Positions 6,961 through 27,673 of a DNA stretch of 64,000 bases are shown piece after piece. Numbering within the stretch: the first letter of the stretch is position 1; each line of letters opens with the position of its first letter. This DNA comes from Chloroflexota bacterium (GTDB lineage Bacteria; Chloroflexota; UBA11872): the NCBI GenBank assembly GCA_022824495.1, contig JAJDZU010000009.1, forward strand, positions 1 through 64,000. Direction: 5' to 3'. The notes beneath the pieces were generated by a model. It worked only from the letters and a program-made list of their open reading frames with translations. It was not told the origin of the DNA and made no database searches. Position numbers and translations under genes: made by a program.

Positions 6961-9807
6961 TCAGCTAAGCCGATCTTGATTCAAACTTAGGAGATTCTGT
7001 AGCAAGCATTCGTCTGAGATGCTTGGAAGCAGTCCATAGGCTTTCGCCACCGCCGCATCCAACTCCCTATGCGCATCCAGCAACCACCGCGGCCGCTCGT
7101 TATACAAATTCGTCAACGTCCTCCGCCCAAGCTCCTTCAGAGGTGCGCTGGCAGTCGGAACCGCCCGCTTCGGATACCCCGCCACCGGCTCCTCCACCCA
7201 CTCCACCCATTCCGGCGGATTCAGCCAGTGGTCACGGAGCTCCACTAGTCGTCGTGCGGCCTGTGCAATGGCGATAGCCCGCGGATCGTCGGCGTAGTCG
7301 GCGGCTGGAATGTCGGGCGCTAGACCTTCGGGAAACGGAAACGTCTGGAAGGTGGTCGTAGGCGTGTAACGCGGATCGTTTCCCACGCCGAGCCAGGTGC
7401 CGAGACGGAGCGACCAGAGTTCATGGAATCGGCTGTGCAGGATGCCGAACGTCGTGTCGTCGTCGCGGGCAATCACGATGAGCTGATGATCGGGGCAAAC
7501 GCTCCTGTCGTACCACGCGAACAGCCGATGCCTCGCCATTGTTGGGGTGGCGATGTAGCGGGACAGACCATCCAGCGCCTGCCACATGGCAGGCCGCGGA
7601 CGCCAGTGCCGCCACCACTCGTCTCGAAGTTTCTTTATTCGGTTCCGTTGCCGCACCGGTCTGACGTTGCCTGACACGTAGGCGAACGGTGCTTCGTACA
7701 GCGCCGCTTCCGCCTCGCTCAGAGTTAATCCAAAGTCAACGATCCAGCCATCCGAGTGGCGGCGCGTTAGGTCCCTTCCAATCACTCGCGGCTTCAGTAC
7801 GTCGGCGTTCGGCCGACCATTTGGGTTGGACGGTAGCCGCAGCCATTCGCGCGCGAGGTCGCCGGGAATGTCAAACGCGCCGTTCTTGTTGACGCCCAGG
7901 AACGCAACGCCCTGATTGCTTTCCAGACGTGAGGCCTGCGTAAGATCGACGCTTCCTTCGGTCAGATCGGCATGGATGCGTTCTACCGCCGCTCCGTTCA
8001 GATGGATGGCGTCGTCGGAGTCCTTGGCGCCGAAGCAGATCAAGGACACGCGTACGGCCGCCCCGTCGATGACCCAGGGCTCGTCCGACCATGCGTCAAA
8101 GATGGCGCCTCGATCGACAATGCGGTCCAGCACCGCTCGGTTGTTTCCGCCACGGATCGAGTTCGTTGCAACCAGGCCGGCCCGAGCGATCTCGCTTTGG
8201 GCAACCAAGTCGCCGACCTTGGAGAACCAGTAGCAGACCAGATCGGCAGACGCCGGAACCGTGCCTTGATACGCCTGCCGCAATCGCTCCGTGTAGCTGT
8301 GTCCCAGGCCGTCCCGCATGACCCGATCACCCAGAAACGGCGGATTCCCAATCACCACATCCGCCGCCGGCCACTCCGGTTCCCGCCCGTCCTCCGTCAG
8401 CACCGCGTCCCGGTGCTCAATCGACTCCAGGTCATCGAGAATCGGCCTGCGATTCAGGCCGAAACCGTTGCGCTGCATCCACTGGATCTCGCCGATCCAC
8501 ACCGCGGCTCGCGCCAGTTCGGCGGCGTACGGGTTGAGCTCGATGCCCTTGACGCTGGAGGGGCCGATCGACGGGAACTGCCGCCCCAGCCCCAACGCGT
8601 GCGCTTCCAGTTGCACCCGATGCTCCAGGTCTTTCAGTTCGCGCAGGGCCAGGTAAAGGAAGTTCCCGGACCCGCAGGCCGGATCCAGCACGCGAAACTC
8701 GCGAAACCGGCCCAGGAACTCGCGCAGCGTCCGCTCCGCCCGTTGGCGCCGCCGGCCGCCCGCGCCCGCCGGCTCGACGTGGGCCATTTCGTGGGCGATC
8801 AGTTCTTTGGTGCGCTCCCATTCGGCCTTCCAGGGACGCACAATCACCGGTTCGACAATTCGCATGATCTTGTCGGCGTCGGTGTAGTGCGCGCCGAGCT
8901 GAGTGCGTTTGTCCGGGTCCAGCCCCCGCTCGAACAGCGTGCCCAGGATTGACGCGTCGATTTCCGACCAGTCCAGGCGGGCCGCTTCACGCACGATCTC
9001 GATACCGGTCCGGTCCAGCGGCAGGGCCTTGGAGTTCTCGGCGAACAGCCCGCCGTTGAACCAGGGCACGTCGTCCACGCCGAACATCCCGCCGGAAGCC
9101 ATCCGGGCAAACAGCTCGCTCGCCAGCGGGGCGAACTGCTCGGGCCGACGCCGCACCGTATCCAGCAGGCGCCGGAATAGCTGGTCGGGCAGCAGCCGCA
9201 TGTCTTCCGCGAACATGCAGAACGCCAGCCGGATAACGAACCGCGCCACCTCTTGCCGGTCGTGATCCTTGCGCAGCTTCAGCGCCAGGTCGGCGAATGT
9301 GGCCGCGGCCTGCTCCGTGACGGTCTGCCGCGTCTGCTCGGGCCGCAATCGTTCCGGGTCGCTGAACGCCCACTTCAGCTTGCTCCAGGCTTCGTTGTCG
9401 TCGAGGTCGTAGATGGTGAATTCGTGAACCTGGCTGACGCTATTCGTGAAGTTGGTGTAAATGCGGAAGCGCCGCATGTCCGAGACGATCAGCAGCGGCG
9501 GGTTCTCCAGCGCCAGCGCGTATTGCCGTAGCTGCTGAAACGCCGCGTCCAGATCCCGGCCCTGGCTCTTGTACTCCCAGGCGAAATGCGCCCGCTTCCA
9601 CACGTCCGCCCAGCCGCCGCCCCCACTATCCTTCCGCGCCACCTTCTCAAAGCGGTACCACTCCTGGTCCGGGTCGGCTTCCACCGGCGTCGGCTCACCC
9701 AGCAACCGACAAAGATCAAGAAAATGCTCGTGCGCCACCGCCCGCTCATTCAACGCTACCGCCCGCCACTTATCAATGAACTCTGCAGCCGTCATCCCAT
9801 CAGCCAA
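6961..9807 (-). CDS. MmeI-like type IIG restriction-modification enzyme
   Basis: 948 aa (a start at an internal ATG at 9795 is also possible). The order is that of MmeI-family enzymes. First is an N-terminal PD-(D/E)xK-type nuclease region around residues 45-90 (FEKVARKD...WEYKSQGRD), then a helical connector. The class I N6-adenine methyltransferase follows, with motif I DPACGSGNFLYL near 372 and motif IV NPPF near 487. A C-terminal target-recognition region ends the protein. One polypeptide cuts and methylates DNA (established for the family). It is intact in length. The downstream DUF4238 gene may belong to the same operon. Confidence 0.88.
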   Translation of the reverse strand: MADGMTAAEFIDKWRAVALNERAVAHEHFLDLCRLLGEPTPVEADPDQEWYRFEKVARKDSGGGGWADVWKRAHFAWEYKSQGRDLDAAFQQLRQYALALENPPLLIVSDMRRFRIYTNFTNSVSQVHEFTIYDLDDNEAWSKLKWAFSDPERLRPEQTRQTVTEQAAATFADLALKLRKDHDRQEVARFVIRLAFCMFAEDMRLLPDQLFRRLLDTVRRRPEQFAPLASELFARMASGGMFGVDDVPWFNGGLFAENSKALPLDRTGIEIVREAARLDWSEIDASILGTLFERGLDPDKRTQLGAHYTDADKIMRIVEPVIVRPWKAEWERTKELIAHEMAHVEPAGAGGRRRQRAERTLREFLGRFREFRVLDPACGSGNFLYLALRELKDLEHRVQLEAHALGLGRQFPSIGPSSVKGIELNPYAAELARAAVWIGEIQWMQRNGFGLNRRPILDDLESIEHRDAVLTEDGREPEWPAADVVIGNPPFLGDRVMRDGLGHSYTERLRQAYQGTVPASADLVCYWFSKVGDLVAQSEIARAGLVATNSIRGGNNRAVLDRIVDRGAIFDAWSDEPWVIDGAAVRVSLICFGAKDSDDAIHLNGAAVERIHADLTEGSVDLTQASRLESNQGVAFLGVNKNGAFDIPGDLAREWLRLPSNPNGRPNADVLKPRVIGRDLTRRHSDGWIVDFGLTLSEAEAALYEAPFAYVSGNVRPVRQRNRIKKLRDEWWRHWRPRPAMWQALDGLSRYIATPTMARHRLFAWYDRSVCPDHQLIVIARDDDTTFGILHSRFHELWSLRLGTWLGVGNDPRYTPTTTFQTFPFPEGLAPDIPAADYADDPRAIAIAQAARRLVELRDHWLNPPEWVEWVEEPVAGYPKRAVPTASAPLKELGRRTLTNLYNERPRWLLDAHRELDAAVAKAYGLLPSISDECLLQNLLSLNQDRLS

Positions 9808-10223: not shown

Positions 10224-10414
10224 CTAATCCGTAACAATCCGAAACGGAATCGACCGCCGCGGCCCTCTCGGCCTTACCGCCCCAAACCGGTCATACAGCC
10301 AGTAGCACAACGCCTTGATCGCGTGATTGTCCGCGTCGATCGGCTGTTCCGAGATCGGGTGATGCTCCGGCGGCTCGTGGTAGCGGTAATTCCCGAACTC
10401 CCGCATCAGCGCCC
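10224..10414 (-). pseudogene. Orphan 3' end of a terminase large-subunit gene
   Basis: The minus strand encodes REFGNYRYHEPPEHHP...DADNHAIKALCYWLYDRFG...PRRSIPFRIVTD, nearly identical to the last ~62 residues of the intact terminase at 22766-24079. Homology stops abruptly at about 10414, where unrelated repeat DNA begins. It is a broken or transplanted 3' end with no start of its own. Confidence 0.85.
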
Positions 10415-12520: not shown

Positions 12521-12601
12521 GCAACCCGAAAATCCGAACTCCCGCGTCCATAAGTTCCCCGCAGCCTCCCCGCCTCACCACGTAATCCGGAAAGGAATCG
12601 A

Positions 12602-12810
12602 CCGCCCGCAAGACCGCCAGCACTGTCGTGTCCGACACCCCGCCGATCCGACTCTTGCTCCCTCGCCCGGTGGGAGAGGGTTGGGGTGAGGGTCTTCCGC
12701 GCACCCAACGCGCACGAGCACCGACGGCTAGCCAGAGCACCCCACCAACCCCAGCCGTCCACTCCACACCCCCTAATCCGTAACAATCCGAAACGGAATC
12801 GACCGCCGCG
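12602..12810. repeat. ~200-bp module duplicated at 22600-22800, ending in a terminase-tail remnant
   Basis: This stretch matches 22600-22800 closely, including the CCCTCGCCCGGTGGGAGAGG hairpin element at about 12658. It ends (12772-12810) with the last ~12 codons of the terminase reading frame (RRSIPFRIVTD, minus strand). A related CTCCCTTGAGGGAGAAGG element lies at about 12887-12904. Confidence 0.75.
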
Positions 12811-13002
12811 GCCCCTGCCGATTCACCGTCCCAGACTGTCGACAGCGACCCCAAGCACCAACCGCCGGATGCCGCTCTTTCTCCTTCTCCCTTGAGGGAG
12901 AAGGCTGGGATGAGGGTGGCTGCCGGCCCCAGCACCCACGCGGAAACAGCAGCAATCAGCCAAACCCCACCTGTCTTTCTCCTGCTCCGGGTACTTCCTC
13001 CA

Positions 13003-13398
13003 TCACCACGTAATCCGAAACGGAATCGACCGCCTTGGCCCCCGCGGCCGCACCGCTCCAAACCGGTCATACAACCAGTAACACAACGACTTGATCGCGT
13101 GATTGTCCGCGTCGATCGGCTGTTCCGAAATCGGCCGGCGCTTATACGGTTCGCGCTGTCGCAGAGACTCGCAAACGCTTGACTCAGCGCTTGCCGCGAC
13201 CTGGCGAGCCAGAAAAGCCGCCACAATCGCCCCCGCCGTTCCCACCACATTCAGCACAACCACCAGCAGCAGACCCACCATCCACACCTTCAGGTTGGCA
13301 ACGTCAGCCTTCGTGGCACAGTGCGTCAGCGTCCGATCCAGTTCGTCCCGTAGGTCCGATCTGGTTAAAGGCGGTTCTTGGACCCGGGCGGTCATCAT
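13003..13398 (-). pseudogene. Chimeric ORF: small membrane-protein head fused to a terminase tail
   Basis: 131 aa from ATG 13398, with GAGGGG about 7 bases upstream. Residues 1-88 have a charged N-terminus (SDLRDELDRTLTH, ATKADVANLK) and then one strong membrane helix (VWMVGLLLVVVLNVVGTAGAI), a layout like small phage XhlA/holin-type proteins. From about residue 89 the frame continues into DADNHAIKSLCYWLYDRFG...RRSIPF, the C-terminal end of the terminase. The join looks like recombination. Whether the product is made is unknown. The head recurs as a decayed copy at 608-688. Confidence 0.6.
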
Positions 13399-13738: not shown

Positions 13739-16700
13739 GTGCCGATCATCAACGTGCAGGACGCGATCGAGGTGCATGAGCACATCGACGAGGTATTCGC
13801 CGCCGCCCAGCCGGACGAACGCGCCCAGGCAGTCCGCCGGCTCTTCGTCGAGGCCTTGGACTTCAACCCTGATTCTGGCCACGTATCCCTAGATTCGGCT
13901 CCGGCCCGAGTCTCTCTCCCGCCGTCCGCCGAACGCATCGCCCTCCTCGACGGCGTCCACGTCTGCTACATCGCCCTCGATACCTCCGATACCGACCGAG
14001 TACGCAAGCAGGAAGCCGTCGCTGCAGCCCGCCAGTTGGCGGACGATCTGGGCGACGATCTCCTGCTCGTATTCACCAACACGTCCAGAAGCCAACTGCA
14101 CGTCGTCCACCCGCAGTTCGAGACCGCCCAACCCACCCTCCGCCGCATGGTCGTCGAGCGCGACCTGCCCCGCCGCACCGCCGTCCAGCAGATCGCCAAC
14201 ATTTACTCGAACCACGTCGATTCCGGCAGCATCCGCACAGCACTCGAAACCGCCTTCGATGTCGAACCGGTCACCAGACGCTTTTTCGCCGAATACAAGC
14301 GCGTATTCCAAGACGCGGAGAAGCTCATCATCGGCTCAAATAGCGACATCGAGGCCGACTGGCACCTGTTCGTCCAGACACTCTTCAACCGCCTCATGTT
14401 TGTCCACTTCCTCTCGCGCAAGGGCTGGCTGACGTTCGACTGCGATACCGATTACCTCAACGCACTCTGGCGCAGCTACCAGTCTCGGCGCGACGAAACC
14501 AGCTTCTACCGCGATCGTCTACACCCTCTGTTCTTCTGTGGACTCAACAACCCGTCGTCCACCGATGTAAACCGAGCAGGCCGTTATATGTCCTCTGTCT
14601 ACGGGGATCCGCCCTTCCTCAACGGCGGCCTGTTCGAAAAGAGTGAACTGGACCGGCGAATCGACATCAAAGTGCCGGACTCGGCCGTGGAACCCCTGCT
14701 CGTCCAACTGTTCAACCGCTTCAACTTCACGGTCCTCGAATCCACTCCCTTCGACATCGAAGTTGCCGTCGACCCCGAAATGCTCGGCAAGGTCTTCGAG
14801 GAGCTGGTCACCGGTCGCAACGAGTCCGGGGCCTACTACACACCGCGGACGGTCGTGGCCTTCATGTGCCGCGAGGCGATCAAGGGCTATCTGGAAGGCA
14901 GGGAAATAGGCCTTGGCGCTGAAGACATTGAGCAATTCGTGGACAAGCGTGACGCCAGCAGAATACCCCTAAGCGCCGCACTGAAGGTCAGCCAGGCACT
15001 GGATGAGATCACCGTCGTCGACCCCGCCTGCGGATCCGGTGCATACCTGCTGGGCATGTTGCAAGAGCTAGTCGACCTGCAGACCACTCTATACAACGTT
15101 AGGACAGATTCCCGCAGCCTTTACGAATTGAAGCTCCACATCATCGAGCGCAACCTCTACGGCGTGGACAACGACCAATTCGCTGTCAATATCGCCATGC
15201 TGCGATTGTGGCTTTCACTCGCCATTGAAGGCGAGGAGCCCGAGCCTCTACCCAACCTGGACTTTAAGATTGTATGCGGCGACAGCCTCCTCGCTCCGGA
15301 TCCCAATCCGGCATTGCAGGGTGATCTGTTTACCGAGTATATCCGAGCATCTAAACTCGGCAGTCTAAAAGCCGAGTACATGCGTGCGTTTGAAGGAAAC
15401 GTCAAGAGCTCGAAGAAGTCTGAGATTGAGCGCATACAGCAACATCTGGGTGACATGCTTGGGGGAATCGCTGTCCCCGAAAAGGTGATTGACTGGCGCA
15501 TCAGCTTTGCAGAAGTCTTCTCGGCACATGAAGGTTTTCACGTCGTCATTGCGAATCCACCGTACGTCCAGCTGCAGAGAGACGGAGGCAGGTTGGGCAA
15601 GCTTTACCAAGACGTGGGCTACCAGACTTTCGTCCGCACCGGTGACATCTACCAACTCTTCTACGAGCGCGGATGTCAGTTGCTCAAGAAACGTGCCGGC
15701 ATGCTCGCCTATATCACTTCCAATAGCTGGCTGAGAGCTGAGTACGGCAAGTCACTTCGCCAATATTTCACGGAAGAGCAAGAGCCGGTCGTTCTTCTCG
15801 AACTCGGCAAGGATGTCTTTGCGAGCGCGATCGTGGACACCAGCGTTCTTCTCTTGCGAGAAGGAGGCGCAGGCGAGACCTTCCCTGCGGCCGATGTGGA
15901 CCACCTGCCGAGTGACGACTTCCCGTCGGCTGCTAGCTTGCTAGGCCGGGTTCGCCCCGCAGGTGAAGGACCATGGAGCATCCTGTCGCCCTTAGAACAG
16001 AGCGTAATGGACAAGATGCTTGCCGTGGGCACGCCATTGAAAGATTGGGATATTGCTATTTATCGAGGAATAACAACGGGCCTCAACAGCGCATTCATCA
16101 TCGATAATCAAACTAAGGAAGCAATAGTCTCCCAAGACTCAAAATCCGAAGAGATCATTAAGCCCGTGCTTCGTGGACGAGACATACAACGCTACCAAGC
16201 CCAATGGAAAGGCCGATGGCTAATATCTACCTTTCCTTCTCTCGATCTAAACATCGATGACTATCCCGCAGTGAAGGAGCACCTACTTTCATATGGTAAA
16301 CAGCGGCTCGAGCAATCGGGAATACGGTTTTCCGATGGAACACGATCTAGAAAGACGACTCGCCACGCTTGGTTTGAATTACAGGATACCTGCGCTTACC
16401 ACGAAGAGTTCAAGAGCAAGAAACTGCTATGGCGACGTGTTTCAAGTCAAGGAACCTTTGCATATGATGAGAGCGAGATCTATTGCATAAACGCTGGATG
16501 CATGATAGTCGGAAGGAATTTAAAGTATCTGTGTGCTATATTGAATGCCAGAGTAAGTGCTTGGTTCTCACGACGAAGACATCCGACATCTGGGACAGGT
16601 ACATTTCATTGGGAAATAGTTCACGTCGGACGGATCCTGATCCCCACGGTCAGCACTCACGCACAACAACCGCTTGTTCGTCTGATGGATCGCATCATCC

Positions 16701-16816
16701 ATGCTAAGGCCGCCGATCCTAGGACGAACACGGAGGACTTTGAGGCGCAGTTAGACAAGCTCGTGTATGACCTCTATGGGCTAACGCCTGAAGAGATCGC
16801 GGCAGTAAACAAATAG
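13739..16816 (+). CDS. Eco57I-like N6-adenine DNA methyltransferase with C-terminal target-recognition region (type IIG-like)
   Basis: 1025 aa from GTG 13739, with GGGAGG ten bases upstream and a possible -10 TATAAT at 13700-13705. The frame is open further upstream but only over repeat DNA. Residues 1-130 form an N-terminal domain without an obvious nuclease motif. The motif GAYYTPRTVV near 365, motif I DPACGSGAYLLGM near 427 and motif IV NPPYVQL near 605 define the methyltransferase. From about 770 a TaqI-type specificity region follows (FIIDNQT at 786-792, CAYHEEF near 883, TSGTGTFHW). Two DNA blocks in this region are repeated, inverted, in the orphan cassette at 16878-17693. The distal TRD is AT-richer than the MTase half. 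Confidence 0.88.
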   Translation: MPIINVQDAIEVHEHIDEVFAAAQPDERAQAVRRLFVEALDFNPDSGHVSLDSAPARVSLPPSAERIALLDGVHVCYIALDTSDTDRVRKQEAVAAARQLADDLGDDLLLVFTNTSRSQLHVVHPQFETAQPTLRRMVVERDLPRRTAVQQIANIYSNHVDSGSIRTALETAFDVEPVTRRFFAEYKRVFQDAEKLIIGSNSDIEADWHLFVQTLFNRLMFVHFLSRKGWLTFDCDTDYLNALWRSYQSRRDETSFYRDRLHPLFFCGLNNPSSTDVNRAGRYMSSVYGDPPFLNGGLFEKSELDRRIDIKVPDSAVEPLLVQLFNRFNFTVLESTPFDIEVAVDPEMLGKVFEELVTGRNESGAYYTPRTVVAFMCREAIKGYLEGREIGLGAEDIEQFVDKRDASRIPLSAALKVSQALDEITVVDPACGSGAYLLGMLQELVDLQTTLYNVRTDSRSLYELKLHIIERNLYGVDNDQFAVNIAMLRLWLSLAIEGEEPEPLPNLDFKIVCGDSLLAPDPNPALQGDLFTEYIRASKLGSLKAEYMRAFEGNVKSSKKSEIERIQQHLGDMLGGIAVPEKVIDWRISFAEVFSAHEGFHVVIANPPYVQLQRDGGRLGKLYQDVGYQTFVRTGDIYQLFYERGCQLLKKRAGMLAYITSNSWLRAEYGKSLRQYFTEEQEPVVLLELGKDVFASAIVDTSVLLLREGGAGETFPAADVDHLPSDDFPSAASLLGRVRPAGEGPWSILSPLEQSVMDKMLAVGTPLKDWDIAIYRGITTGLNSAFIIDNQTKEAIVSQDSKSEEIIKPVLRGRDIQRYQAQWKGRWLISTFPSLDLNIDDYPAVKEHLLSYGKQRLEQSGIRFSDGTRSRKTTRHAWFELQDTCAYHEEFKSKKLLWRRVSSQGTFAYDESEIYCINAGCMIVGRNLKYLCAILNARVSAWFSRRRHPTSGTGTFHWEIVHVGRILIPTVSTHAQQPLVRLMDRIIHAKAADPRTNTEDFEAQLDKLVYDLYGLTPEEIAAVNK
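16094..16114 (+). repeat. Inverted repeat pair 1, copy in the methyltransferase
   Basis: Twenty-one bases containing ATCATCGATAATCAAAC, identical to the reverse complement of 17553-17573. They encode FIIDNQT in both genes and lie between less similar flanks. Candidate recombination site. Confidence 0.8.
16390..16407 (+). repeat. Inverted repeat pair 2, copy in the methyltransferase
   Basis: Eighteen bases, CTGCGCTTACCACGAAGA, identical to the reverse complement of 17287-17304. They encode CAYHEE in the same frame in both genes. This is a second possible crossover point that splits the specificity region into two halves. Confidence 0.75.
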
Positions 16817-16877
16817 CTTTAGACTCATTGACAAAATGGAGTGTAATAGACATGATAAGATATTCGCAAATAGACTC

Positions 16878-17693
16878 TCACTTACCAGAGATTACATGGA
16901 TTTCATCTTCGGTCAATCCATACAGTCTATACACATGACGATCAATCGCCTCTTCTATATTCTCACTGTCCGTGAGCCTTGTGTCCAAATTGGCAAGGAT
17001 ACGCTCTACTAGTCGGACAAGCGCTAGTTCCCTGGCGCGCTCTACCTTCGGTACTGGTAATCGTTCAACATAAGCCTTCTTCCAGCGCAACGTGCCCGTT
17101 CCTGAAGTCGGAGCAGTCTTTTCTAGAAACCAGTGGGTGAGGGTCGCATTGAGTAGGGCGCAAAGGTATTTTATCGACTCCCCGGTCAGAAGGAACGTAG
17201 TGGCCTCTCCATAGAGGCCGCTGTTGTCGTAGGAAAATCGACCATTGTTGACAAGCTCAATCCAGAGAAGCTTCTCCCTGGTGAATTCTTCGTGGTAAGC
17301 GCAGTTACGGAGGTTATACGGCGTTTGTCCCTTGTCGTAGCGTCTTGCTAGACGTGTGTAGAAACTGTCGAGGTGTGCTTTCACCGCTGGGTACTCTTCG
17401 ATGTCGACAGCAGGTACATTGTCGTACCCATTGTGAGTGTCAATCAGCCATTTCCCCGCCCAATGTGGTCGATATCGCCGGATATCCCGACCGCGCACAA
17501 CCGGCTTGATAATTTCCCTTGATTTGGGGTCGTGAGCGATCAGATCTTGGTAAGTTTGATTATCGATGATGAAGGCATCGTTGAAGCCAGTTTTTATTCC
17601 GTAGTAAATAGCATATCCAACGACTAGATGATGTCGCGATGGTCCATCCGGCAGTCGGGCAATCCCTTCGCACTCGTGAGTTCGGAACCTCAT
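16878..17693 (-). CDS. Orphan, probably silent target-recognition cassette paralogous to the methyltransferase C-terminus
   Basis: 271 codons without any methyltransferase motif. From about residue 27 (GYAIYYGIKTGFNDAFIIDNQT) to the end it parallels the last ~250 residues of the enzyme at 13739-16816: IIKPVVRGRDIRRY, CAYHEEF, TSGTGTLRWKKAYVERLPVP, YRLYGLTEDEI. It faces the active gene tail to tail, 61 bases away. FIIDNQT starts at codon 41. Inversion between the 21-bp repeats would therefore join MTase residues 1-785 to cassette residues 41-271 in frame (1016 aa). The first ~26 residues do not match and the ATG is probably incidental. It could instead be a dead remnant, but the frame is intact. 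Confidence 0.75.
   Translation of the reverse strand: MRFRTHECEGIARLPDGPSRHHLVVGYAIYYGIKTGFNDAFIIDNQTYQDLIAHDPKSREIIKPVVRGRDIRRYRPHWAGKWLIDTHNGYDNVPAVDIEEYPAVKAHLDSFYTRLARRYDKGQTPYNLRNCAYHEEFTREKLLWIELVNNGRFSYDNSGLYGEATTFLLTGESIKYLCALLNATLTHWFLEKTAPTSGTGTLRWKKAYVERLPVPKVERARELALVRLVERILANLDTRLTDSENIEEAIDRHVYRLYGLTEDEIHVISGK
17287..17304 (-). repeat. Inverted repeat pair 2, copy in the orphan cassette
   Basis: Reverse complement of 16390-16407, 18 of 18 bases identical. Same reading frame within the cassette. Confidence 0.75.
17553..17573 (-). repeat. Inverted repeat pair 1, copy in the orphan cassette
   Basis: Reverse complement of 16094-16114, 21 of 21 bases identical. Same reading frame within the cassette. 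The segment between the two copies is about 1.48 kb. Confidence 0.8.
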
Positions 17694-17866: not shown

Positions 17867-18829
17867 GTGCTGGATCCTGACTTTACTGATAGAGATTCGT
17901 ATTCCGAAGGACTTCCGTCAGAGTTATCTGACAATACGCGTACTGCATATCAGAAAGGTTGGAATCGGTTTGTTGAGTACTGTGTTGCTGAACATATTCC
18001 CATTCCATTGTCGGCGTCCCCGGAACAAGTAGCTCACTTCTTTGTCCAGCTGGCAACGCAACCCAGCCCACACAGTGGAGTGGTACTTGCGATGGGTACA
18101 ATTATGCTCTATAAGAGTGCTGTCAATAAGACGTTTCTTATGGCCGGAAAGCCTTCACCAACGAGCCATCCGCTGGTCCAAGCGACGATTAGAGGCCTGC
18201 ATCGAGTCAAGGGCTCTACCAATCGCCGGGTCGAAGCGCTGCGGGAGCACCACATTGAATCTATGTTGCAGGTGTGCCCGGACACTTTGATCGGCAAGAG
18301 AGACTCCGCCATCATTGCTGTTGGATTCGCCGCTGCCATGCGCCGGTCGGAGATATGCAGTCTGTGTGTCGAAGACGTGGAGTTCTTGTTGGACGGGGAG
18401 GAACACCGAATGTGGCTTACGATTCGGAGATCCAAGACTGATCAACAAGGCAGAGGGCAGCGAGTGGCGGTTTTGGACGGAAGACGCATCCGTCCTATAG
18501 CGCGTCTACGAATCTGGCTGGAGGATTCCGGCATCACCGATGGGCCGCTCTTCCAGACGATGAAGCGCGGAGGCGGTTTGCGAGGAAGGCCGATGCACCA
18601 TAGTGATATTCCTCGGATTCTGAAGCACTATGCAGCGCTCATCGGGCTGAATCCAAGGGATGTCGCGGGGCATTCCTTGCGGGCGGGCTTTGTCACGAGT
18701 GCGGCCGTTCACCACGCACGACTGGACAAGATCATGGAGGTCACTCGCCATGCCAATCCGGCAACGGTGATGCGATATATTCGAGACGCCGACGCGTTCG
18801 CCGACCATGCTGGTCAGCGTTTCCTTTAG
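17867..18829 (+). CDS. Tyrosine recombinase (phage-integrase family), candidate invertase for the adjacent TRD locus
   Basis: 320 aa from GTG 17867, with AAGGAG six bases upstream. It has an N-terminal SAM-like DNA-binding half (NTRTAYQKGWNRFVEYC) and a catalytic half with the full R-K-H-R-H-Y set: Arg in AAMRRSEI, Lys in RRSKTDQQG, HSLR, the second His in TRHANPATV and the Tyr in VMRYIRDAD. Such enzymes invert or excise DNA by strand exchange at short repeats (established). It lies beside the inverted TRD cassette and away from phage genes, which suggests it flips the cassette (inference). A GGCCTC-T-GAGGCC dyad at 17828-17840 in its leader may be an operator or hairpin. Confidence 0.9.
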   Translation: MLDPDFTDRDSYSEGLPSELSDNTRTAYQKGWNRFVEYCVAEHIPIPLSASPEQVAHFFVQLATQPSPHSGVVLAMGTIMLYKSAVNKTFLMAGKPSPTSHPLVQATIRGLHRVKGSTNRRVEALREHHIESMLQVCPDTLIGKRDSAIIAVGFAAAMRRSEICSLCVEDVEFLLDGEEHRMWLTIRRSKTDQQGRGQRVAVLDGRRIRPIARLRIWLEDSGITDGPLFQTMKRGGGLRGRPMHHSDIPRILKHYAALIGLNPRDVAGHSLRAGFVTSAAVHHARLDKIMEVTRHANPATVMRYIRDADAFADHAGQRFL

Positions 18830-18995: not shown

Positions 18996-21900
18996 ATGAA
19001 CATCCTCCACGCCTCCACCGACCCGACACTGCTCGCACGCTTGAAGGAAATGCTGACCAGTTCCGCCCGTGCCGACATCGCCGTGGGCTACTTCTTCATG
19101 AGCGGTTTCCAGCAGGTAGTTGACGACCTGGCTGCACTGGACAAGGTCCGCATTCTGGTCGGACGCACTGACAGGAAAGTGCTCGACCAGGTCGCCCTCG
19201 GTCTCCAGCAGACGCAGGCGCTCCGCGCCCGGCTGAATACGGACAGTCTGCTGCCGCGCGGGCAGCGGGCCTCCGTTACTCGGGAGTCTGTGGACCGCAT
19301 CGCCCGGGGCGTCGCCCTTCTGCCTCAGGACCGTGATTCGCAGCATGCAGTTTCCTTGCTGCGGGACATGGTTGCGTCGGGGAAGGTCGAGATCCGCTCC
19401 TACCCGCGCGGTCCCCTGCACGCCAAGGCCTACCTCTGCTGGTACGCCAACCACGCCGAACCGGGCGCGGCGGTTGTCGGCTCCTCAAACTTCACCCTGG
19501 CCGGCTTCACGGGCAACACCGAACTCAACGTGCGCGTCACCGGCGATGCCGAAATGGCCGCGCTTCGCGAATGGTTCGAGTCGCTCTGGAAGGACTCTCA
19601 GGACATTAGCCAGACCCTGCTAGCTCAGCTAAATCGCTCCTGGGTGCTCGCCCACACACCGCCCTATCACGTCTACCTCAAGGCTTTGCACGAGCTGTAC
19701 TACACCGACTTCAGGGGCGCTGAACTGCCGCTGCCGCAGCCCGCCGAGCCACTGGCTAACTTTCAGCTCAGCGCCGTCAGAGGCGGGCTGGGCATGATTG
19801 AGGCTTACGGCGGCTGCTACATCGGCGACGTCGTGGGCTTGGGCAAGACCTACATCGGTGCCGAACTTCTGCGCCAGCTCCGCGTCAGCAATCCAAACGA
19901 CGGCTTGCCGCTGATCCTCTGTCCTGCCGGACTAGTCCCCATGTGGCGGCGTTTCAACGAGGAGTTCGGTCTAGGCGCCGAGGTCGTGTCCCACAGCATG
20001 ATCCGTGCCGTCCCCGATCCCGAGTTTGACGAAGAGTTGGGCCGATATGTCGATGCCCAGACACCCGAACACGGCTTGATCCTGCAGGACCGGTACGCCA
20101 ACCGCGGGCCGGTGCTGGTTGACGAAGCCCATAACTTCCGCAACCTCAACCAGCGCTCGCTCGGTCTCCGCCAATACCTGGACGCTGGAGATCACAAGGT
20201 CATTCTGCTCAGCGCGACGCCCCAAAACCTCGGTCCGATGGATATTTACCGCCAGTTGCGATTGTTCTTGGATGAGACGGAGCACGGCTTGAACATCGAA
20301 CCGCTCAACCTGGAGGAGTATTTCCGTAACGCGCGGCGCTGGCACGAGTACCAAGCGGACTACGAAAACTATAAGGCCGAACACAAAGCATGGGTAGAGA
20401 GTGGTGCCCAGGGTGTGCCGCCCATGGACAAGCCCACGCCGCCAAGCGCGCCCCACGCTGACATTCAGCAAGTGCTTGCGCCAATCTTCATTCGTCGCCG
20501 GCGCCGCGACATTCGCGAACTCTACGGCGACACGGCCATGGTGAACGAGCAACCCGTGCGCTTTCCGGACCCGGTGCTGAGCAACTTGGACTACCGGCTG
20601 GACAAGGTGTACGCCAAGGCCGGATCCCTCGCCGACCTTCAGGCTCGGCTCAAGGAGCACCAGGCGGCCCGGTACAGGGCCACCGACTACCTGAAGCCTG
20701 CGGCCAAGGAGAAGAACGAGTATCGCGACCTGTTTAGGGCAGGCGACCGAATCCCGAACCTCATGCGGGCGCTGCTCTTCAAACGCTTGGAGTCCAGCAT
20801 CGCGGCTTTCCGCTCCACGCTGGAATCTCTGGTCCACAGCAACCGGAACTTTCGCGAGTCTCTCGAGGCCGGCTTTGTTCCGATTGGGACCACGGCCACC
20901 CGCGTGCTGTCCGGCCAGTCGTTTGACGCCAGTGAATTGCTGGAAATCCTTCAACAGGAGGAGGAGAAGCGAAGCGAGCGTGCACTTGAGCGGTCCACGC
21001 TCGTCCACTCCACCGCTGACTTTGAGCTGGGGAGCTGGCTCGACGATCTTGATGCCGACTTCAGATTGCTAGCCGACATCCGGGCTCGAATCGTCGACAT
21101 CGGGCCAGAGGACGACGACAAGCTCCAGTCGCTGCGCCGCTTTCTCGATCGGTCAGAGGTGGCGTCGGGCAAAGTGCTGATCTTCTCGGAGGCCGAGACG
21201 ACCGTCGAGTACCTGCATCGCGAACTCAATCCCGATGGCAATTCGGAAGTCGCGCGTCTGACCGGAAGCACCAGCGGCAATGCGACGAGTATCGTCCGTC
21301 GCTTTTCCCCGAAGAGCAATCCCGAAAGAAGTGGCCGAGCCCCACGCAACGAGATTCGCGTATTGCTTGCCACTGACGTTGTCTCGGAGGGCCAGAACTT
21401 GCAGGACTGTGCCCGTGTCCTGAACTACGACCTGCACTGGAATCCCGTCCGGCTAATTCAACGCTTCGGCCGTGTCGACCGCATTGGCTCCGAGCACGAC
21501 GTAATCCACCTGCACAACATGTGGCCCGACACCGATGTGGACGCCGAGTTGGACTTGACCGATCGCCTAAGTAACCGCATCCAATCTTTCCACGACCTGA
21601 TAGGCCTCGACAGCAAGCTGCTGTCTGAGTCTGAACGCCTAAACGTCGGCGACATGTTCCGCATCTATGTCGAAAAGGAATTACCAGAAGAAGACGACGT
21701 GCTCGACGAATTGGCCGCCAACCAGCGTGCGGTCGCCCTGTTACAGCGAATCCAGCAGGAAAGTCCTGAGCTTTGGGAAACGGTCGTGAATCTGCCCGAC
21801 GGCATCCGCTCGGCGCTCAATGCCGGCGGGGAGCCCGGTAGCGACGGATCGGATGTCCATCTGCAGAACGTTCTGGCGGTCGACGGGATGCAAATGCCGT

Positions 21901-22490
21901 TGGTGTCCCCCAACCAACCGACGGCCCCAGCGTCGCCGTTCGATGCCCCGCGCGCCGGCGAGACGCTGGTGTTGTTGGCTGCCGGCGAAGTCAAGAGTTG
22001 TTACGCCGTCGCCGACGGTCAGGAACCGCGCCAGATCAGCCCCGCCCAGTTCGTGGCGGCCGCCGAGTGCCAGCCGATTACGCCCGCCCAAACACTGCCG
22101 CCAACGACAAACGAACGCGTAATGCGAGCTTTCGAGGCTTTCCGAACCGATGTGCAGCAACGCCTCGGCCGCGCCCGTCGTCCCCGCAACACCCAGGCCC
22201 GCCGCTACGTATCGCGACGCCTGAATCAGGCACGCGCGGACTTGGCAACGTCGCCCGACCTGGCAAAGCGCATCGACACACTCCGTCGCATCTTTCTCGC
22301 CGAGCTGCCGTCAGGCGCCGAAAACGGTCTGGAAGAGATTCGACGGCTCGGACTGCAAGGCACCATCCTGATCACCCGCCTCGAAGCCCTCCGCGAACGC
22401 TTCCGCCTCAACCCGCCCGACGACTCCGCCGCCAGCAAATCCCCCGAACCCCAGATCATCCGCATCGTCTGCTCCGACGGCCTCACCTAA
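18996..22490 (+). CDS. PLD-nuclease/SNF2-type helicase fusion
   Basis: 1164 aa from ATG 18996. Residues 1-215 form a phospholipase D-like nuclease module with one HxK motif (LHAKAYL near 141) and GSSNFT near 160, so two chains would be needed for a full active site. The SF2/SNF2 helicase follows: Walker A VVGLGKT near 279, DEAH near 374, LSATPQ near 407 and motif VI QRFGRVDRIG near 821. Similar fusions act as ATP-driven nucleases in restriction-like loci (family knowledge). It lies 166 bases after the recombinase on the same strand and may be the restriction partner of the methyltransferase (inference). DISARM uses separate helicase and PLD genes plus DrmA/DrmB, which are not seen here. Confidence 0.88.
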   Translation: MNILHASTDPTLLARLKEMLTSSARADIAVGYFFMSGFQQVVDDLAALDKVRILVGRTDRKVLDQVALGLQQTQALRARLNTDSLLPRGQRASVTRESVDRIARGVALLPQDRDSQHAVSLLRDMVASGKVEIRSYPRGPLHAKAYLCWYANHAEPGAAVVGSSNFTLAGFTGNTELNVRVTGDAEMAALREWFESLWKDSQDISQTLLAQLNRSWVLAHTPPYHVYLKALHELYYTDFRGAELPLPQPAEPLANFQLSAVRGGLGMIEAYGGCYIGDVVGLGKTYIGAELLRQLRVSNPNDGLPLILCPAGLVPMWRRFNEEFGLGAEVVSHSMIRAVPDPEFDEELGRYVDAQTPEHGLILQDRYANRGPVLVDEAHNFRNLNQRSLGLRQYLDAGDHKVILLSATPQNLGPMDIYRQLRLFLDETEHGLNIEPLNLEEYFRNARRWHEYQADYENYKAEHKAWVESGAQGVPPMDKPTPPSAPHADIQQVLAPIFIRRRRRDIRELYGDTAMVNEQPVRFPDPVLSNLDYRLDKVYAKAGSLADLQARLKEHQAARYRATDYLKPAAKEKNEYRDLFRAGDRIPNLMRALLFKRLESSIAAFRSTLESLVHSNRNFRESLEAGFVPIGTTATRVLSGQSFDASELLEILQQEEEKRSERALERSTLVHSTADFELGSWLDDLDADFRLLADIRARIVDIGPEDDDKLQSLRRFLDRSEVASGKVLIFSEAETTVEYLHRELNPDGNSEVARLTGSTSGNATSIVRRFSPKSNPERSGRAPRNEIRVLLATDVVSEGQNLQDCARVLNYDLHWNPVRLIQRFGRVDRIGSEHDVIHLHNMWPDTDVDAELDLTDRLSNRIQSFHDLIGLDSKLLSESERLNVGDMFRIYVEKELPEEDDVLDELAANQRAVALLQRIQQESPELWETVVNLPDGIRSALNAGGEPGSDGSDVHLQNVLAVDGMQMPLVSPNQPTAPASPFDAPRAGETLVLLAAGEVKSCYAVADGQEPRQISPAQFVAAAECQPITPAQTLPPTTNERVMRAFEAFRTDVQQRLGRARRPRNTQARRYVSRRLNQARADLATSPDLAKRIDTLRRIFLAELPSGAENGLEEIRRLGLQGTILITRLEALRERFRLNPPDDSAASKSPEPQIIRIVCSDGLT

Positions 22491-22542: not shown

Positions 22543-22765
22543 TAATCCGTAACAATCCGAGACGGAAACGACCTCCTCGGCCCCCTCGGCCACACCGCCC
22601 GCAGAATCTCCAGCACCTTCGTGTCCGACATCCCGCTGATCCGCCTCTTGCTCCCTCGCCCGGTGGGAGAGGGTTGGGGTGAGGGTCTTCCGCGCAACCA
22701 ACGCACACGAGCATCGACGGCTAGCCAAAGCAACGCACCAACCCCAACCGCCCACTCCACAACCC
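22543..22765. repeat. Duplicated module next to the terminase gene, with a tail-like remnant
   Basis: Matches 12602-12810, with the CCCTCGCCCGGTGGGAGAGG hairpin element at about 22653. Its left edge (22543-22600) reads on the minus strand RGPRRSFPSRIVTD, another version of the terminase C-terminus, joined to MSDTKVLEILRAVWP. A 72-codon minus-strand ORF (22542-22760) spans it, but I do not trust it as a gene. Confidence 0.65.
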
Positions 22766-24079
22766 CTAATCCGTAATAACCCGAAACGGAATCGACCGCC
22801 TTGGCCCCCTTGGCCTCACCGCCCCAAACCGGTCATACAGCCAGTAACACAACGCCTTGATCGCGTGATTGTCCGCGTCGATCGGCACTTCCGAGACCGG
22901 GTGATGCTCCTGCGGCTCGTGATACCGGTAATTCCCAAACTCCCGGATCAGCGCCTGGCAGCGCGAATTCACCGTCATCCGCGGCGCCCCCGTCCCCGGA
23001 TTGCGTAAGAACGTCCGCAGCCGTTCGATCCCGTCCTGCAGCAGCACCCGGTGCGAGCGCAGCCGGATTCGCGCCTGCGCCAGCCACACCTCAATCTGGC
23101 TCGGCATCGCGTGATGCTGCCGCCCCGCGATGTCGATCACCCCGCTCCGCACGTACGGCCACCACGACCGTCGCTTACACGCCTCGATCACCTGCGACGT
23201 CATCGCGTACTGCATGTAAACCTCGTCCAGCACAAACACCTCCGACCCGCGCTGCGCCACCGCCAGCACCGCGTACGCCCCTGCATAGCCCGGATCCACC
23301 GCGATCTCGATGTTGTCGAAACTCTCGTACGAGTCCTTGATCGTCCGCACGTGCGCCGCCGGCTCGAACTCCCGGAACACCAGCGACACCGGCGCGCACG
23401 GCACCCCGCCCAGCCGCTCCTGGAACAGGTCCGATGGGTACGCCACCGCCAGCCGCTCGATCTCCGGATCCTCCCGACCGCCCGGAAACAGCGTCCGGTT
23501 CGCCCAGGACGGAATCGAAAACGAGGCCGCCTCGTCCGGGTTCTCGCTCTGCCAGGCCCGGAACTTCTCCGCGTACCAGCCCCGCGAACCCTCGAACGTC
23601 CCGCTCAGCCACAACCAGCCGCGCCGTTCCGACAGTCGCCCGCTCAGCCGCAGAAACGCCTCATACGACAGCTGCGCCGCCTCGCACCCCAGGATCCCGT
23701 CCGGCGCCTGCCCCGCCAGCCGCAGCGCCCGTTGCGCCGTCCGCGTCGCGATCACCGTGCCGTTGCGCAGCAACATCCGGTTCGACTGCCCGCTCGGCAT
23801 GCTCAGCGTCTCGATCGCGTCCAGCGACTCCAGCGATTCGACCAGGTACGTGAACTCCGGCCGGCACAGGTCATAATCCGGCCCCACCAGCCAGTACAGC
23901 TGCCCTTCCAGGAACCGCCCCGCCAGCTCCATCGCCGCGCTGCGGCTTTTCCCGGCCCGCTCCCCGCCCGCGATCAGCCGGATCCGCGCCTCCGAATCAT
24001 GCGCCGCGCGCTGCTCCGGGTACGGCCGGTACCCCACCCGCGCCCACAGGTGATTACGAACCGCTGGCGGCAGCCGCAC
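22766..24079 (-). CDS. Phage terminase large subunit-like ATPase/nuclease
   Basis: 437 aa from the GTG at 24079, chosen because GGAGG stands six bases upstream. The longer open frame only overlaps the preceding gene. Walker A-like GGERAGKS is near residue 40, and an RNase H-type nuclease core starts at VDPGYAGAY near 260, with FVLDEVY and a final DADNHAIKALCYW. Terminases package phage DNA (established). No capsid, portal or tail gene is visible beside it, so this is either the edge of a decayed prophage or a gene-transfer/satellite remnant. Its 3' end recurs, broken, at 10224, 12772, 13003 and 22543. Confidence 0.82.
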   Translation of the reverse strand: MRLPPAVRNHLWARVGYRPYPEQRAAHDSEARIRLIAGGERAGKSRSAAMELAGRFLEGQLYWLVGPDYDLCRPEFTYLVESLESLDAIETLSMPSGQSNRMLLRNGTVIATRTAQRALRLAGQAPDGILGCEAAQLSYEAFLRLSGRLSERRGWLWLSGTFEGSRGWYAEKFRAWQSENPDEAASFSIPSWANRTLFPGGREDPEIERLAVAYPSDLFQERLGGVPCAPVSLVFREFEPAAHVRTIKDSYESFDNIEIAVDPGYAGAYAVLAVAQRGSEVFVLDEVYMQYAMTSQVIEACKRRSWWPYVRSGVIDIAGRQHHAMPSQIEVWLAQARIRLRSHRVLLQDGIERLRTFLRNPGTGAPRMTVNSRCQALIREFGNYRYHEPQEHHPVSEVPIDADNHAIKALCYWLYDRFGAVRPRGPRRSIPFRVITD

Positions 24080-24299
24080 GTAAATCCTCCAGTAACCCCG
24101 CAAACGCCTGCCCGCTCCCCGCCCGCGGCGGCTCCCCGAACGCATACCGGAACGCCAGTTCCACCGCCCACCGCTCCCCCGCCAGCGCTTTGTCCAGCAC
24201 CAGGTCCGACAACTCATCCGCCTTCACCAACACCGCCGACCGAAACCGCTGCTCCGCGCTCGTCGGCCGCTTCCTACCCCGTCGCTTACCCACGTCCAA
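24054..24299 (-). CDS. Small terminase-subunit-like protein
   Basis: 81 aa: MDVGKRRGRKRPTSAEQRF, then an acidic/hydrophobic helix pair (VKADELSDLVLDKALAGERWAVELAFRYAFG). Size, the basic N-terminus, and the 26-base overlap with the large subunit suit a terminase small subunit or its DNA-binding partner (inference from context, no strong motif). It is the first gene after the divergent promoter. Confidence 0.6.
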   Translation of the reverse strand: MDVGKRRGRKRPTSAEQRFRSAVLVKADELSDLVLDKALAGERWAVELAFRYAFGEPPRAGSGQAFAGLLEDLRAAAASGS

Positions 24300-26472: not shown

Positions 26473-27621
26473 ATGAGCTACCGGCCGCTGGCTGACGTTC
26501 GCAAAGACCTTCGGGTCCAGTGGTACCGCTGCCCCATCGAGGGCGCCAGGCTGCGCGAACTCTCCCGCCGCAGCGACCTCCAGGGCTGGTTCCAGGCCGG
26601 CGGTCACCTGGCGCTCTTTCTCACGACCGGCGCCATTACCTACTTCTTCTGGCTGCAACAGATCTGGGTCGGCGTTGTCATCGGGCTCTTCTTCCACGGA
26701 ACCGTGGGCTCGTTCTTGCGCGGTGTCGCGAGTCACGAGCTTGTCCACGGCTCGGTCTTCCGAAGCAAGTTTCTGAACAAGTTCTTCTTGTACTTCTTCG
26801 GTCTCGTGGGCTGGTTTGATTCCTTCGACTACGCCAGCAGCCACACCTATCACCACCGCTACACCCTGCACCCCGAGGGCGACCGCGAGGTTCTGCTTCC
26901 CCTCAAACCGACCGTCGGCAAGACTTTCCTGCTCCAGATATGCACCATCAACCTCTGGACGCAGAAGGGCCGTACCTTCGGCCGCGCCGGCGGCCTCATC
27001 CCCACCATCATCGCCACGGTCCGATCGGCCTTTTCGACGCCCGGCTCGCCGGATACGTCCAAGTCGGAGTGGTGGAACGCCTTGAACTACGACCAGCCGG
27101 AACAGTACCGCCGCTCGCTCTGGTGGTCGCGCGCGCAGTTGACCTACCACGCAACCGTCTGGGTGGTATCGATCCTGACCGGCCAATGGATCTGGATCTT
27201 CCTGGTGAGCATCTTTCCCTTCATCGCCAATCTGGCTTCCTACCTGGTCAGCATGCCCCAGCACTGCGGCCTGCGAGACAACGTCCCCGACTTCCGAAAA
27301 TGCGTGCGCTCGAACACTCTGATTCCGATCCTCGAATTCCTCTACTGGCGCATGAACTGGCACCTGGAGCACCACATGTACGCCGGCGTCCCCTGCTACA
27401 ACCTCAAGAAGCTCTACCACGAAGTCGCCCACGACATGCCGGAACCGCGCACCCTCCGCAGCGCCTGGCGCGAGATGCTGGACACCTGGAACCGCCAGCA
27501 AACCGACCCCGACTATCAGTACGACACCCCGCTGCCCGCCACCGCGCAGCGCATCCGCGAGGATGAATCCACCGCGCTGGAGAGCTCGATCGGAGACCTC
27601 GCGCCGAAGGGTCTGAGATAG
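26473..27621 (+). CDS. Membrane fatty-acid desaturase, copy 1
   Basis: 382 aa, with GGGGAGAG before the ATG. The three His boxes of the FA_desaturase family are present: HELVHG near 88, HTYHHRYT near 123 and WHLEHHMY near 296, with paired hydrophobic segments between them. They bind a di-iron centre that inserts a double bond or hydroxyl into a lipid chain (established). The exact substrate is not clear. The next gene is a close paralogue (roughly three quarters identical by eye), so this is a recent tandem duplication. The conserved MPQHCGLRDNVPDFRKCVRS stretch is unusual and shared by both. Confidence 0.88.
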   Translation: MSYRPLADVRKDLRVQWYRCPIEGARLRELSRRSDLQGWFQAGGHLALFLTTGAITYFFWLQQIWVGVVIGLFFHGTVGSFLRGVASHELVHGSVFRSKFLNKFFLYFFGLVGWFDSFDYASSHTYHHRYTLHPEGDREVLLPLKPTVGKTFLLQICTINLWTQKGRTFGRAGGLIPTIIATVRSAFSTPGSPDTSKSEWWNALNYDQPEQYRRSLWWSRAQLTYHATVWVVSILTGQWIWIFLVSIFPFIANLASYLVSMPQHCGLRDNVPDFRKCVRSNTLIPILEFLYWRMNWHLEHHMYAGVPCYNLKKLYHEVAHDMPEPRTLRSAWREMLDTWNRQQTDPDYQYDTPLPATAQRIREDESTALESSIGDLAPKGLR

Positions 27622-27673
27622 CTATGCAAGGCACGATGAATCCCCTGGTTCAAAGGCCCTGGGAGGAGAAGCC

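What the first reader, a model, noticed from the sequence alone, without database searches (positions are those of the whole stretch)
16094..17573. Invertible target-recognition region: 21-bp perfect inverted repeat shared in frame by a methyltransferase and a silent cassette
Seen: 16094-16114 and 17553-17573 are identical in opposite orientation, encode FIIDNQT in the same frame, and have less similar flanks. Inversion of the ~1.48 kb between them gives an intact 1016-residue enzyme with a different specificity region. Inference: specificity phase variation of a type IIG-like methyltransferase, as known for HsdS and some PglX loci.
Basis: partly seen in the sequence, partly recalled or inferred. 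Interest (0 to 1): 0.9.

Follow-up and report, generated by a model that had tools for sequence, protein, structure and literature searches.

The report
Flippable specificity region of DNA methyltransferase
A bacterium probably living in a marine sponge carries a DNA-marking enzyme whose target-reading half can apparently be swapped for a silent spare by flipping about 1.5 kb of DNA with a dedicated recombinase next door, a trick known from type I restriction systems but here found in a single-chain enzyme and shared by many unrelated sponge-type bacteria.

Summary
The 21-bp inverted repeat is real, perfect, in frame and unique in the genome. Alone it is weak evidence (P about 0.007 given the shared amino acids). 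Comparison makes the case. The silent cassette is followed directly by a tyrosine recombinase with all catalytic residues, then a PLD-Snf2 helicase. The same layout (MTase, convergent cassette without N-terminus, same recombinase) occurs in six further genomes and in fragments in three more. Two orthologous loci (L039, L044) carry reciprocally exchanged TRDs, i.e. flipped alleles. Allele linkage fits crossovers at both R1 and R2, so two copies could give four enzyme variants. Several contigs break at R1 or R2, as expected if both orientations coexist. The best explanation is recombinase-driven inversion that switches MTase specificity. Known kind (inverting hsdS, some pglX), new variant: a single-chain Eco57I/TaqI_C-type MTase paired with a PLD-Snf2 protein. 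Inversion inside one population, and the change of target sequence, are inferred and not shown.

The parts
13739..16816 (+). Expressed DNA adenine methyltransferase, 1025 aa from GTG (Eco57I MTase domain plus TaqI_C-type specificity domain)
   Evidence: Pfam Eco57I 3.6e-34, TaqI_C 3.5e-12; PADLOC type IIG models
16054..16059 (+). R1, expressed copy: hexamer TGCTAT (identical run TGCTATTTA 16054-16062); left edge of homology between the two copies; candidate crossover core
17608..17613 (-). R1, silent copy: TGCTAT (identical run 17605-17613)
16094..16114 (+). R2, expressed copy: the reported 21-bp repeat; contains covarying tetranucleotide TCAA at 16108-16111
17553..17573 (-). R2, silent copy; TCAA at 17556-17559 (minus strand)
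16063..16093 (+). Dimorphic peptide YRGITTG between R1 and R2 (silent copy, about 17574-17604, reads YYGIKTG)
16390..16407 (+). R3, 18-bp exact repeat CTGCGCTTACCACGAAGA (CAYHEE motif), boundary between the two halves of the TRD
17287..17304 (-). R3, silent copy
16115..16816 (+). Expressed TRD (half 1 class A, half 2 unique type)
16878..17613 (-). Silent TRD cassette (half 1 class B, half 2 like those of L039sil/L044exp); mechanical ORF 16878-17693
   Evidence: TaqI_C 8.2e-13
16054..17613 (.). Invertible segment if crossover is at R1 (1560 bp); 16094-17573 (1480 bp) if at R2; GC 47.8% against 58.4% for the MTase N-part
17867..18829 (+). Tyrosine recombinase, 320 aa, catalytic R159 K190 H269 R272 H295 Y304 present; presumed invertase
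   Evidence: Pfam Phage_integrase 2.6e-16; XerD similarity; motifs
18996..22490 (+). PLD-domain plus Snf2-type helicase, presumed restriction/effector partner
   Evidence: PLDc_2 and Helicase_C; PADLOC HKD+Snf2 1.7e-55

Best explanation
This is a specificity inverton. The tyrosine recombinase at 17867-18829 catalyses reciprocal inversion of about 1.5 kb between the methyltransferase gene and the convergent silent cassette, which lacks an N-terminus. The crossover falls in short cores at the left edge of the shared sequence (R1, TGCTAT) and/or in the 21-bp repeat (R2). Each inversion keeps the reading frame and joins the constant catalytic N-part (residues 1 to about 772) to the other target-recognition domain. 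The cell would then methylate, and with the PLD-Snf2 partner restrict, a different DNA sequence. Because R1 and R2 flank a two-state peptide (YRG.TTG or YYG.KTG), two copies could give four expressed variants. Shown: anatomy, open frames, conserved architecture, within-genome identity of R1 and R2, DNA-level conservation, reciprocally exchanged alleles between species. Inferred: catalysis by this recombinase, inversion within one population, change of target sequence, role in phage defence.
For: Layout MTase(+), convergent TRD cassette(-), recombinase(+) in the window, G004/L038, L039, L043, L044, L065 and L066, plus fragments in L040, L041 and L067, with two MTase families only about 34-36% identical. 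R1 hexamer and R2 tetranucleotide identical within 8/8 genomes; only 1 of 40,320 re-pairings matches for both, while adjacent control positions do not match. Synonymous codon identity between genomes is 0.67-0.77 over R1-R2 and 0.85 at R3 against 0.38 in the rest of the TRD; homologues without the recombinase use other codons. L039 and L044 (MTase N-parts 61% identical) have exchanged TRDs: 75% and 69% identity crosswise against 44% and 47% in the same position. Linkage of dimorphism and half 1: RA/YB in W and L044, YB/RA in L039 and L043, RB/YA in L065. Intact frames after inversion at R1, R2 or R3. Contig ends at R2 in L040 and on both sides in G625, and at R1 in G403.
Against: No read-level proof of both orientations; the window's own assembly shows one. 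The G004 repeat has 2 of 21 mismatches and no exact inverted repeat of 14 bp or more. No clear dyad arms of a recombinase site were found around R1 or R2. One recombinase homologue (L045, 53%) has no cassette nearby, so the family is not used for this alone. Part of the TRD shuffling could be homologous recombination or horizontal transfer.
Confidence: 0.86

Rival explanations
1. The 21-bp repeat is only a conserved protein motif (G..TG.N.AF.ID) shared by two homologous genes; there is no DNA-level function.
For: The motif is conserved in homologues without a recombinase; chance of seven identical codons given the amino acids is 0.007, not negligible.
Against: Homologues without the recombinase use different codons. 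Synonymous identity is about twice the TRD background, and the variable R1/R2 bases match only within genomes.
Confidence: 0.03
2. The copies are homogenised by ordinary homologous recombination or gene conversion, with the cassette as a slow reservoir of TRDs; the recombinase is incidental or a relic.
For: The TRDs are mosaics of half 1 (A/B) and half 2 types. Related TRD parts occur across MTase families, which implies exchange between genomes. In L066 the dimorphism itself is homogenised.
Against: R1 shares only 6-9 bp and has no homology to its left, too short for RecA-type recombination. Conversion should erase the YRG/YYG dimorphism, yet 7 of 8 genomes keep opposite alleles between two homogenised blocks. 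The recombinase is adjacent and its catalytic residues are intact.
Confidence: 0.09
3. The cassette is a degenerate second MTase gene and the recombinase belongs to a mobile element that inserted beside it.
For: The cassette has no MTase domain; the recombinase is integrase-like; the module lies between partial copies of a terminase-like gene.
Against: The cassette starts at the same homology edge (R1) in every genome and its frame is open through the TRD in all, although stops lie just upstream in L039, L041 and L044. The same trio recurs across phyla and across two MTase families.
Confidence: 0.02

Closest known systems
Inverting type I restriction-modification loci (pneumococcal cod/SpnIII hsdS with tyrosine recombinase PsrA; S. 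suis hsdS)
   Same: Silent specificity cassettes convergent to the expressed gene, a locus-encoded tyrosine recombinase, in-frame inverted repeats (15-bp IR1, 298-bp IR2, 85-bp IR3 in cod: PMC7096588), and several repeat pairs giving combinatorial variants (PMC7394358).
   Different: There a separate HsdS subunit is switched. Here the TRD is the C-terminal part of a single-chain Eco57I/TaqI_C-type MTase and the partner is a PLD-Snf2 protein, not HsdR.
Phase variation of BREX pglX
   Same: A single-chain adenine MTase that also sets specificity is the variable component; pglX phase variation is described as common (PMC11341690). Inverted pglX duplications beside recombinases are recalled from memory only.
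   Different: BREX PglX models match far below cut-off (88.8 against 500 bits); the genes beside this MTase are a recombinase and a PLD-Snf2 protein.
Phase-variable type IIG enzymes (e.g. Campylobacter jejuni NCTC11168; Anjum et al. 2016, cited in PMC5903667)
   Same: A single-chain restriction-modification enzyme of related MTase type that varies between cells.
   Different: Those switch, to my knowledge, by changes in simple sequence tracts; here specificity is exchanged by inversion.
HKD+Snf2 / phospholipase D-like antiphage proteins with an MTase
   Same: The helicase partner matches PADLOC C3a139 (1.7e-55) and NCBIfam NF042964 below cut-off.
   Different: I found no report of a TRD inverton attached to this gene pair in the papers searched.

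Membership tests
Inverting type I RM (hsdS) locus | hsdM, hsdS and hsdR genes | tested here: not met
   The MTase is Eco57I/TaqI_C type in one chain; the partner is PLD-Snf2
Inverting type I RM (hsdS) locus | Locus-encoded site-specific recombinase | tested here: met
   17867-18829, catalytic residues present
Inverting type I RM (hsdS) locus | In-frame inverted repeats between expressed and silent specificity sequences | tested here: met
Inverting type I RM (hsdS) locus | Both orientations in one population | not testable with these tools
   No reads available; only indirect hints from contig ends
Type IIG restriction enzyme | Eco57I-class MTase domain and C-terminal TRD in one chain | tested here: met
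Type IIG restriction enzyme | Fused endonuclease domain | tested here: inconclusive
   The best PADLOC IIG model (PDLC03596) has its best stretch at residues 412-1024 only; no nuclease domain in Pfam
BREX PglX | Match above curated PglX cut-off | tested here: not met
   88.8 bits against 500 for BREX-1, also below for BREX-2, -5 and -6
DISARM (DrmD/DrmMI) | DrmD helicase above curated cut-off | tested here: not met
   149 bits against 610
Tyrosine recombinase / invertase | Conserved R-K-HxxR-H-Y catalytic set | tested here: met
   R159, K190, H269/R272, H295, Y304
Tyrosine recombinase / invertase | Core of about 6-8 bp matching between partner sites, flanked by inverted arms | tested here: inconclusive
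   6-bp R1 core matched in 8/8 genomes, but no clear dyad arms found

The most novel reading that the evidence does not exclude
A combinatorial, at least four-state specificity switch made from only two TRD copies. Two crossover sites about 50 bp apart (R1 and R2) flank a two-state DNA-reading peptide, so one tyrosine recombinase can flip peptide and TRD together or the TRD alone; a third conserved site (R3) might exchange half-TRDs. The whole module has spread among distantly related sponge symbionts and attaches to different MTases.
Probability: 0.45. Interest if true: 0.78.

Novelty: new variant of a known kind. Interest (0 to 1): 0.64.

Why it matters
Inversion-driven specificity switching is documented mainly for type I HsdS. 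This extends it, with comparative evidence, to a single-chain MTase with a PLD-Snf2 partner, in uncultured bacteria from dense host-associated communities where restriction and CRISPR defences are reported to be enriched (PMC5099237, PMC5649159). One enzyme could offer phages, or its own genes, several methylation states, and swapped TRDs supply natural chimeras for reading the specificity code of Eco57I/TaqI_C-type enzymes. The covarying cores predict precise sites that can be tested in E. coli.

Tried and rejected
AlphaFold on the TRD alignment (11 sequences) gave mean pLDDT 53, so it was not used and no fold search was run. A search for inverted arms around R1/R2 found no convincing dyad. 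R3 shows DNA-level conservation but no within-genome covariation (5 of 7 identical, 720 of 5040 re-pairings as good), so it is not claimed as a crossover site. Viral contigs hold no recombinase relative and no R2 pattern. Phylum-wide sampling around the window genome (400 genomes) found only the window and G004. The idea that the 21-bp repeat alone proves inversion was rejected (P about 0.007 given the peptide).

Full report
OBSERVATION. The 21-bp repeat at 16094-16114 and 17553-17573 is exact, inverted and in frame (FIIDNQT) in a 1025-residue methyltransferase gene (GTG 13739 to 16816) and a convergent ORF (16878-17693, minus strand). It is the longest exact inverted repeat in the window; the second longest, 18 bp, joins the same two genes (16390-16407 / 17287-17304). 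The sequence has no other copy in the genome with up to 3 mismatches. Given the identical peptide, the chance of seven identical codons is 0.007, so the repeat is a lead and not a proof.

GENES. The MTase has an Eco57I-type domain and a TaqI_C-type specificity domain; the ORF opposite is only a TaqI_C-type domain. Directly beyond it lies a 320-aa tyrosine recombinase (17867-18829) with R159, K190, H269/R272, H295 and Y304, then a PLD plus Snf2-type helicase (18996-22490; PADLOC HKD+Snf2). In silico inversion at R1, R2 or R3 leaves an intact MTase of 1016, 1016 or 1025 residues.

RELATIVES. A same-genus genome (G004; L037/L038) has the same gene order with a 90% identical recombinase. A scan of 84,980 species genomes with the recombinase found nine loci, in MAGs from Chloroflexota, Gammaproteobacteria, Rhodobacteraceae and a Betaproteobacterium. 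From the record names these look mostly like marine sponge metagenomes; that is my reading. Searches of related genomes added four more. Complete MTase, silent cassette and recombinase sets are present in seven genomes: W, G004, L039, L043, L044, L065, L066. L040, L041 and L067 show the cassette or its beginning at a contig end. L042 has recombinase and helicase with transposase-like ORFs where the cassette would be; L045 (53% identity) and L068 (65%) have no cassette nearby; L046 is cut. L039 and L044 carry a different MTase (34-36% identical to W) with a PLD-Snf2 helicase upstream, so the TRD and recombinase module travels across MTase families. In L039, L041 and L044 the silent frame has stop codons just upstream of the homology, so the cassette is truly headless.

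WHERE THE CROSSOVER LIES. Homology between expressed and silent copies starts at a short block, R1 (TGCTAT in the window, 16054-16059), not at the 21-bp repeat. In L066 the perfect repeat is 66 bp and begins exactly at R1; other perfect repeats are 46 (L065), 44 (L039), 40 (L044) and 38 bp (L043). Between R1 and R2 lies a two-state peptide, YRG.TTG or YYG/NYG.KTG, opposite in the two copies of 7 of 8 genomes. The R1 hexamer (TGCTAT, TGCGAT, CGCGAT, TGAGAT or TGTGAT) and the R2 tetranucleotide (TCAA, TCGA, TCAG, CGAG, CCAG or CCGG) vary between genomes but match within every genome (8/8). Of 40,320 possible re-pairings, 24 do as well for R1, 4 for R2, and only the true one for both; neighbouring control positions do not match. 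This is what matching of the overlap region by a tyrosine recombinase predicts. Loss-free persistence of the dimorphism between two homogenised blocks argues for reciprocal inversion rather than gene conversion. No clear dyad arms were found, so the exact site is not resolved.

DNA-LEVEL CONSTRAINT. Between genomes, synonymous codons agree at 0.67-0.77 in R1-R2 and 0.85 at R3, against 0.38 in the rest of the TRD (7-codon windows: background mean 0.38, s.d. 0.08, maximum 0.60) and 0.42-0.56 in the MTase N-parts. Homologues without the recombinase keep the peptides but not the codons.

FLIPPED ALLELES. L039 and L044 have orthologous MTases (61% left of R1), but L039's expressed TRD matches L044's silent one (69%) and L039's silent matches L044's expressed one (75%), against 44% and 47% in the same position. 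The dimorphism moved with the TRD, which implies crossover at R1. TRD half 1 falls into two classes, A and B. Linkage states (expressed/silent) are RA/YB in W and L044, YB/RA in L039 and L043, and RB/YA in L065; the last differs from W by an exchange at R2. So both sites appear to have been used. Half 2 types (in W silent, L039 silent, L044 expressed and L065 silent, 79-96% identical) occur in both positions. The mosaic at R3 may reflect ordinary recombination.

POPULATION HINTS. G625's MTase contig and its recombinase contig both end just right of R2; L040's recombinase contig also ends there; G403's MTase contig ends exactly at its R1 hexamer. Assemblers break where two continuations exist, so this fits coexisting orientations, but contig ends have other causes, and in G403 the recombinase side carries transposase-like ORFs. 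No reads could be examined.

MECHANISM. Shown: anatomy, open frames, conserved module, covarying cores, exchanged alleles. Inferred: the adjacent recombinase inverts 1.48-1.56 kb; the TRD joined to the constant N-part is the one expressed; methylation specificity changes; the PLD-Snf2 protein restricts DNA lacking the current mark.

KNOWN SYSTEMS. It works like inverting hsdS loci (cod/PsrA, PMC7096588; survey PMC7394358) but is not one: no HsdS, HsdM or HsdR. PglX and DISARM models fall far below cut-off. Type IIG membership is open because no nuclease domain was recognised in the MTase. The papers searched describe recombination-driven switching for type I and slippage for other types; none described a TRD inverton in an Eco57I/TaqI_C-type MTase. 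That absence covers only the open-access library searched.

VERDICT. Real, well supported by comparison, a new variant of a known kind. The main missing piece is direct demonstration of both orientations and of their different methylation motifs.

Noticed in passing
10227-10412, 12601-13167, 22594-24217: A terminase-like ORF (22766-24217, minus; my reading, no Pfam match) has its C-terminal piece repeated at 10227-10412 (90%) and 13012-13167 (77%), with 87-89% identical DNA repeats on both sides of the module: the restriction module sits between duplicated 3' ends of that gene, perhaps a recombination hot spot.
   Followed up: partly
6961-9807 (minus): A second single-chain restriction-methylation enzyme of MmeI type next to the inverton locus.
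   Followed up: no
26473-28819: Tandemly duplicated fatty-acid desaturase-like genes (26473-27621 matched Pfam FA_desaturase; 27674-28819 is a close copy).
   Followed up: no
L045 10001-10984: A recombinase homologue (53%) in a Rhodobacteraceae MAG without MTase or cassette nearby, beside what look like a DUF4007-type gene, a cysteine desulfurase and an ATPase-like gene.
   Followed up: no
window 16054-17613: The invertible segment has 47.8% GC against 58.4% in the MTase N-part and 62.5% in the window, as if TRDs come from outside.
   Followed up: partly
L014 and L017 (about position 1990): Two homologues without this recombinase differ mainly by YRGVLTG or YYGIKTG just before an otherwise identical stretch, suggesting that the dimorphic peptide is a general specificity-linked switch in this family.
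   Followed up: no
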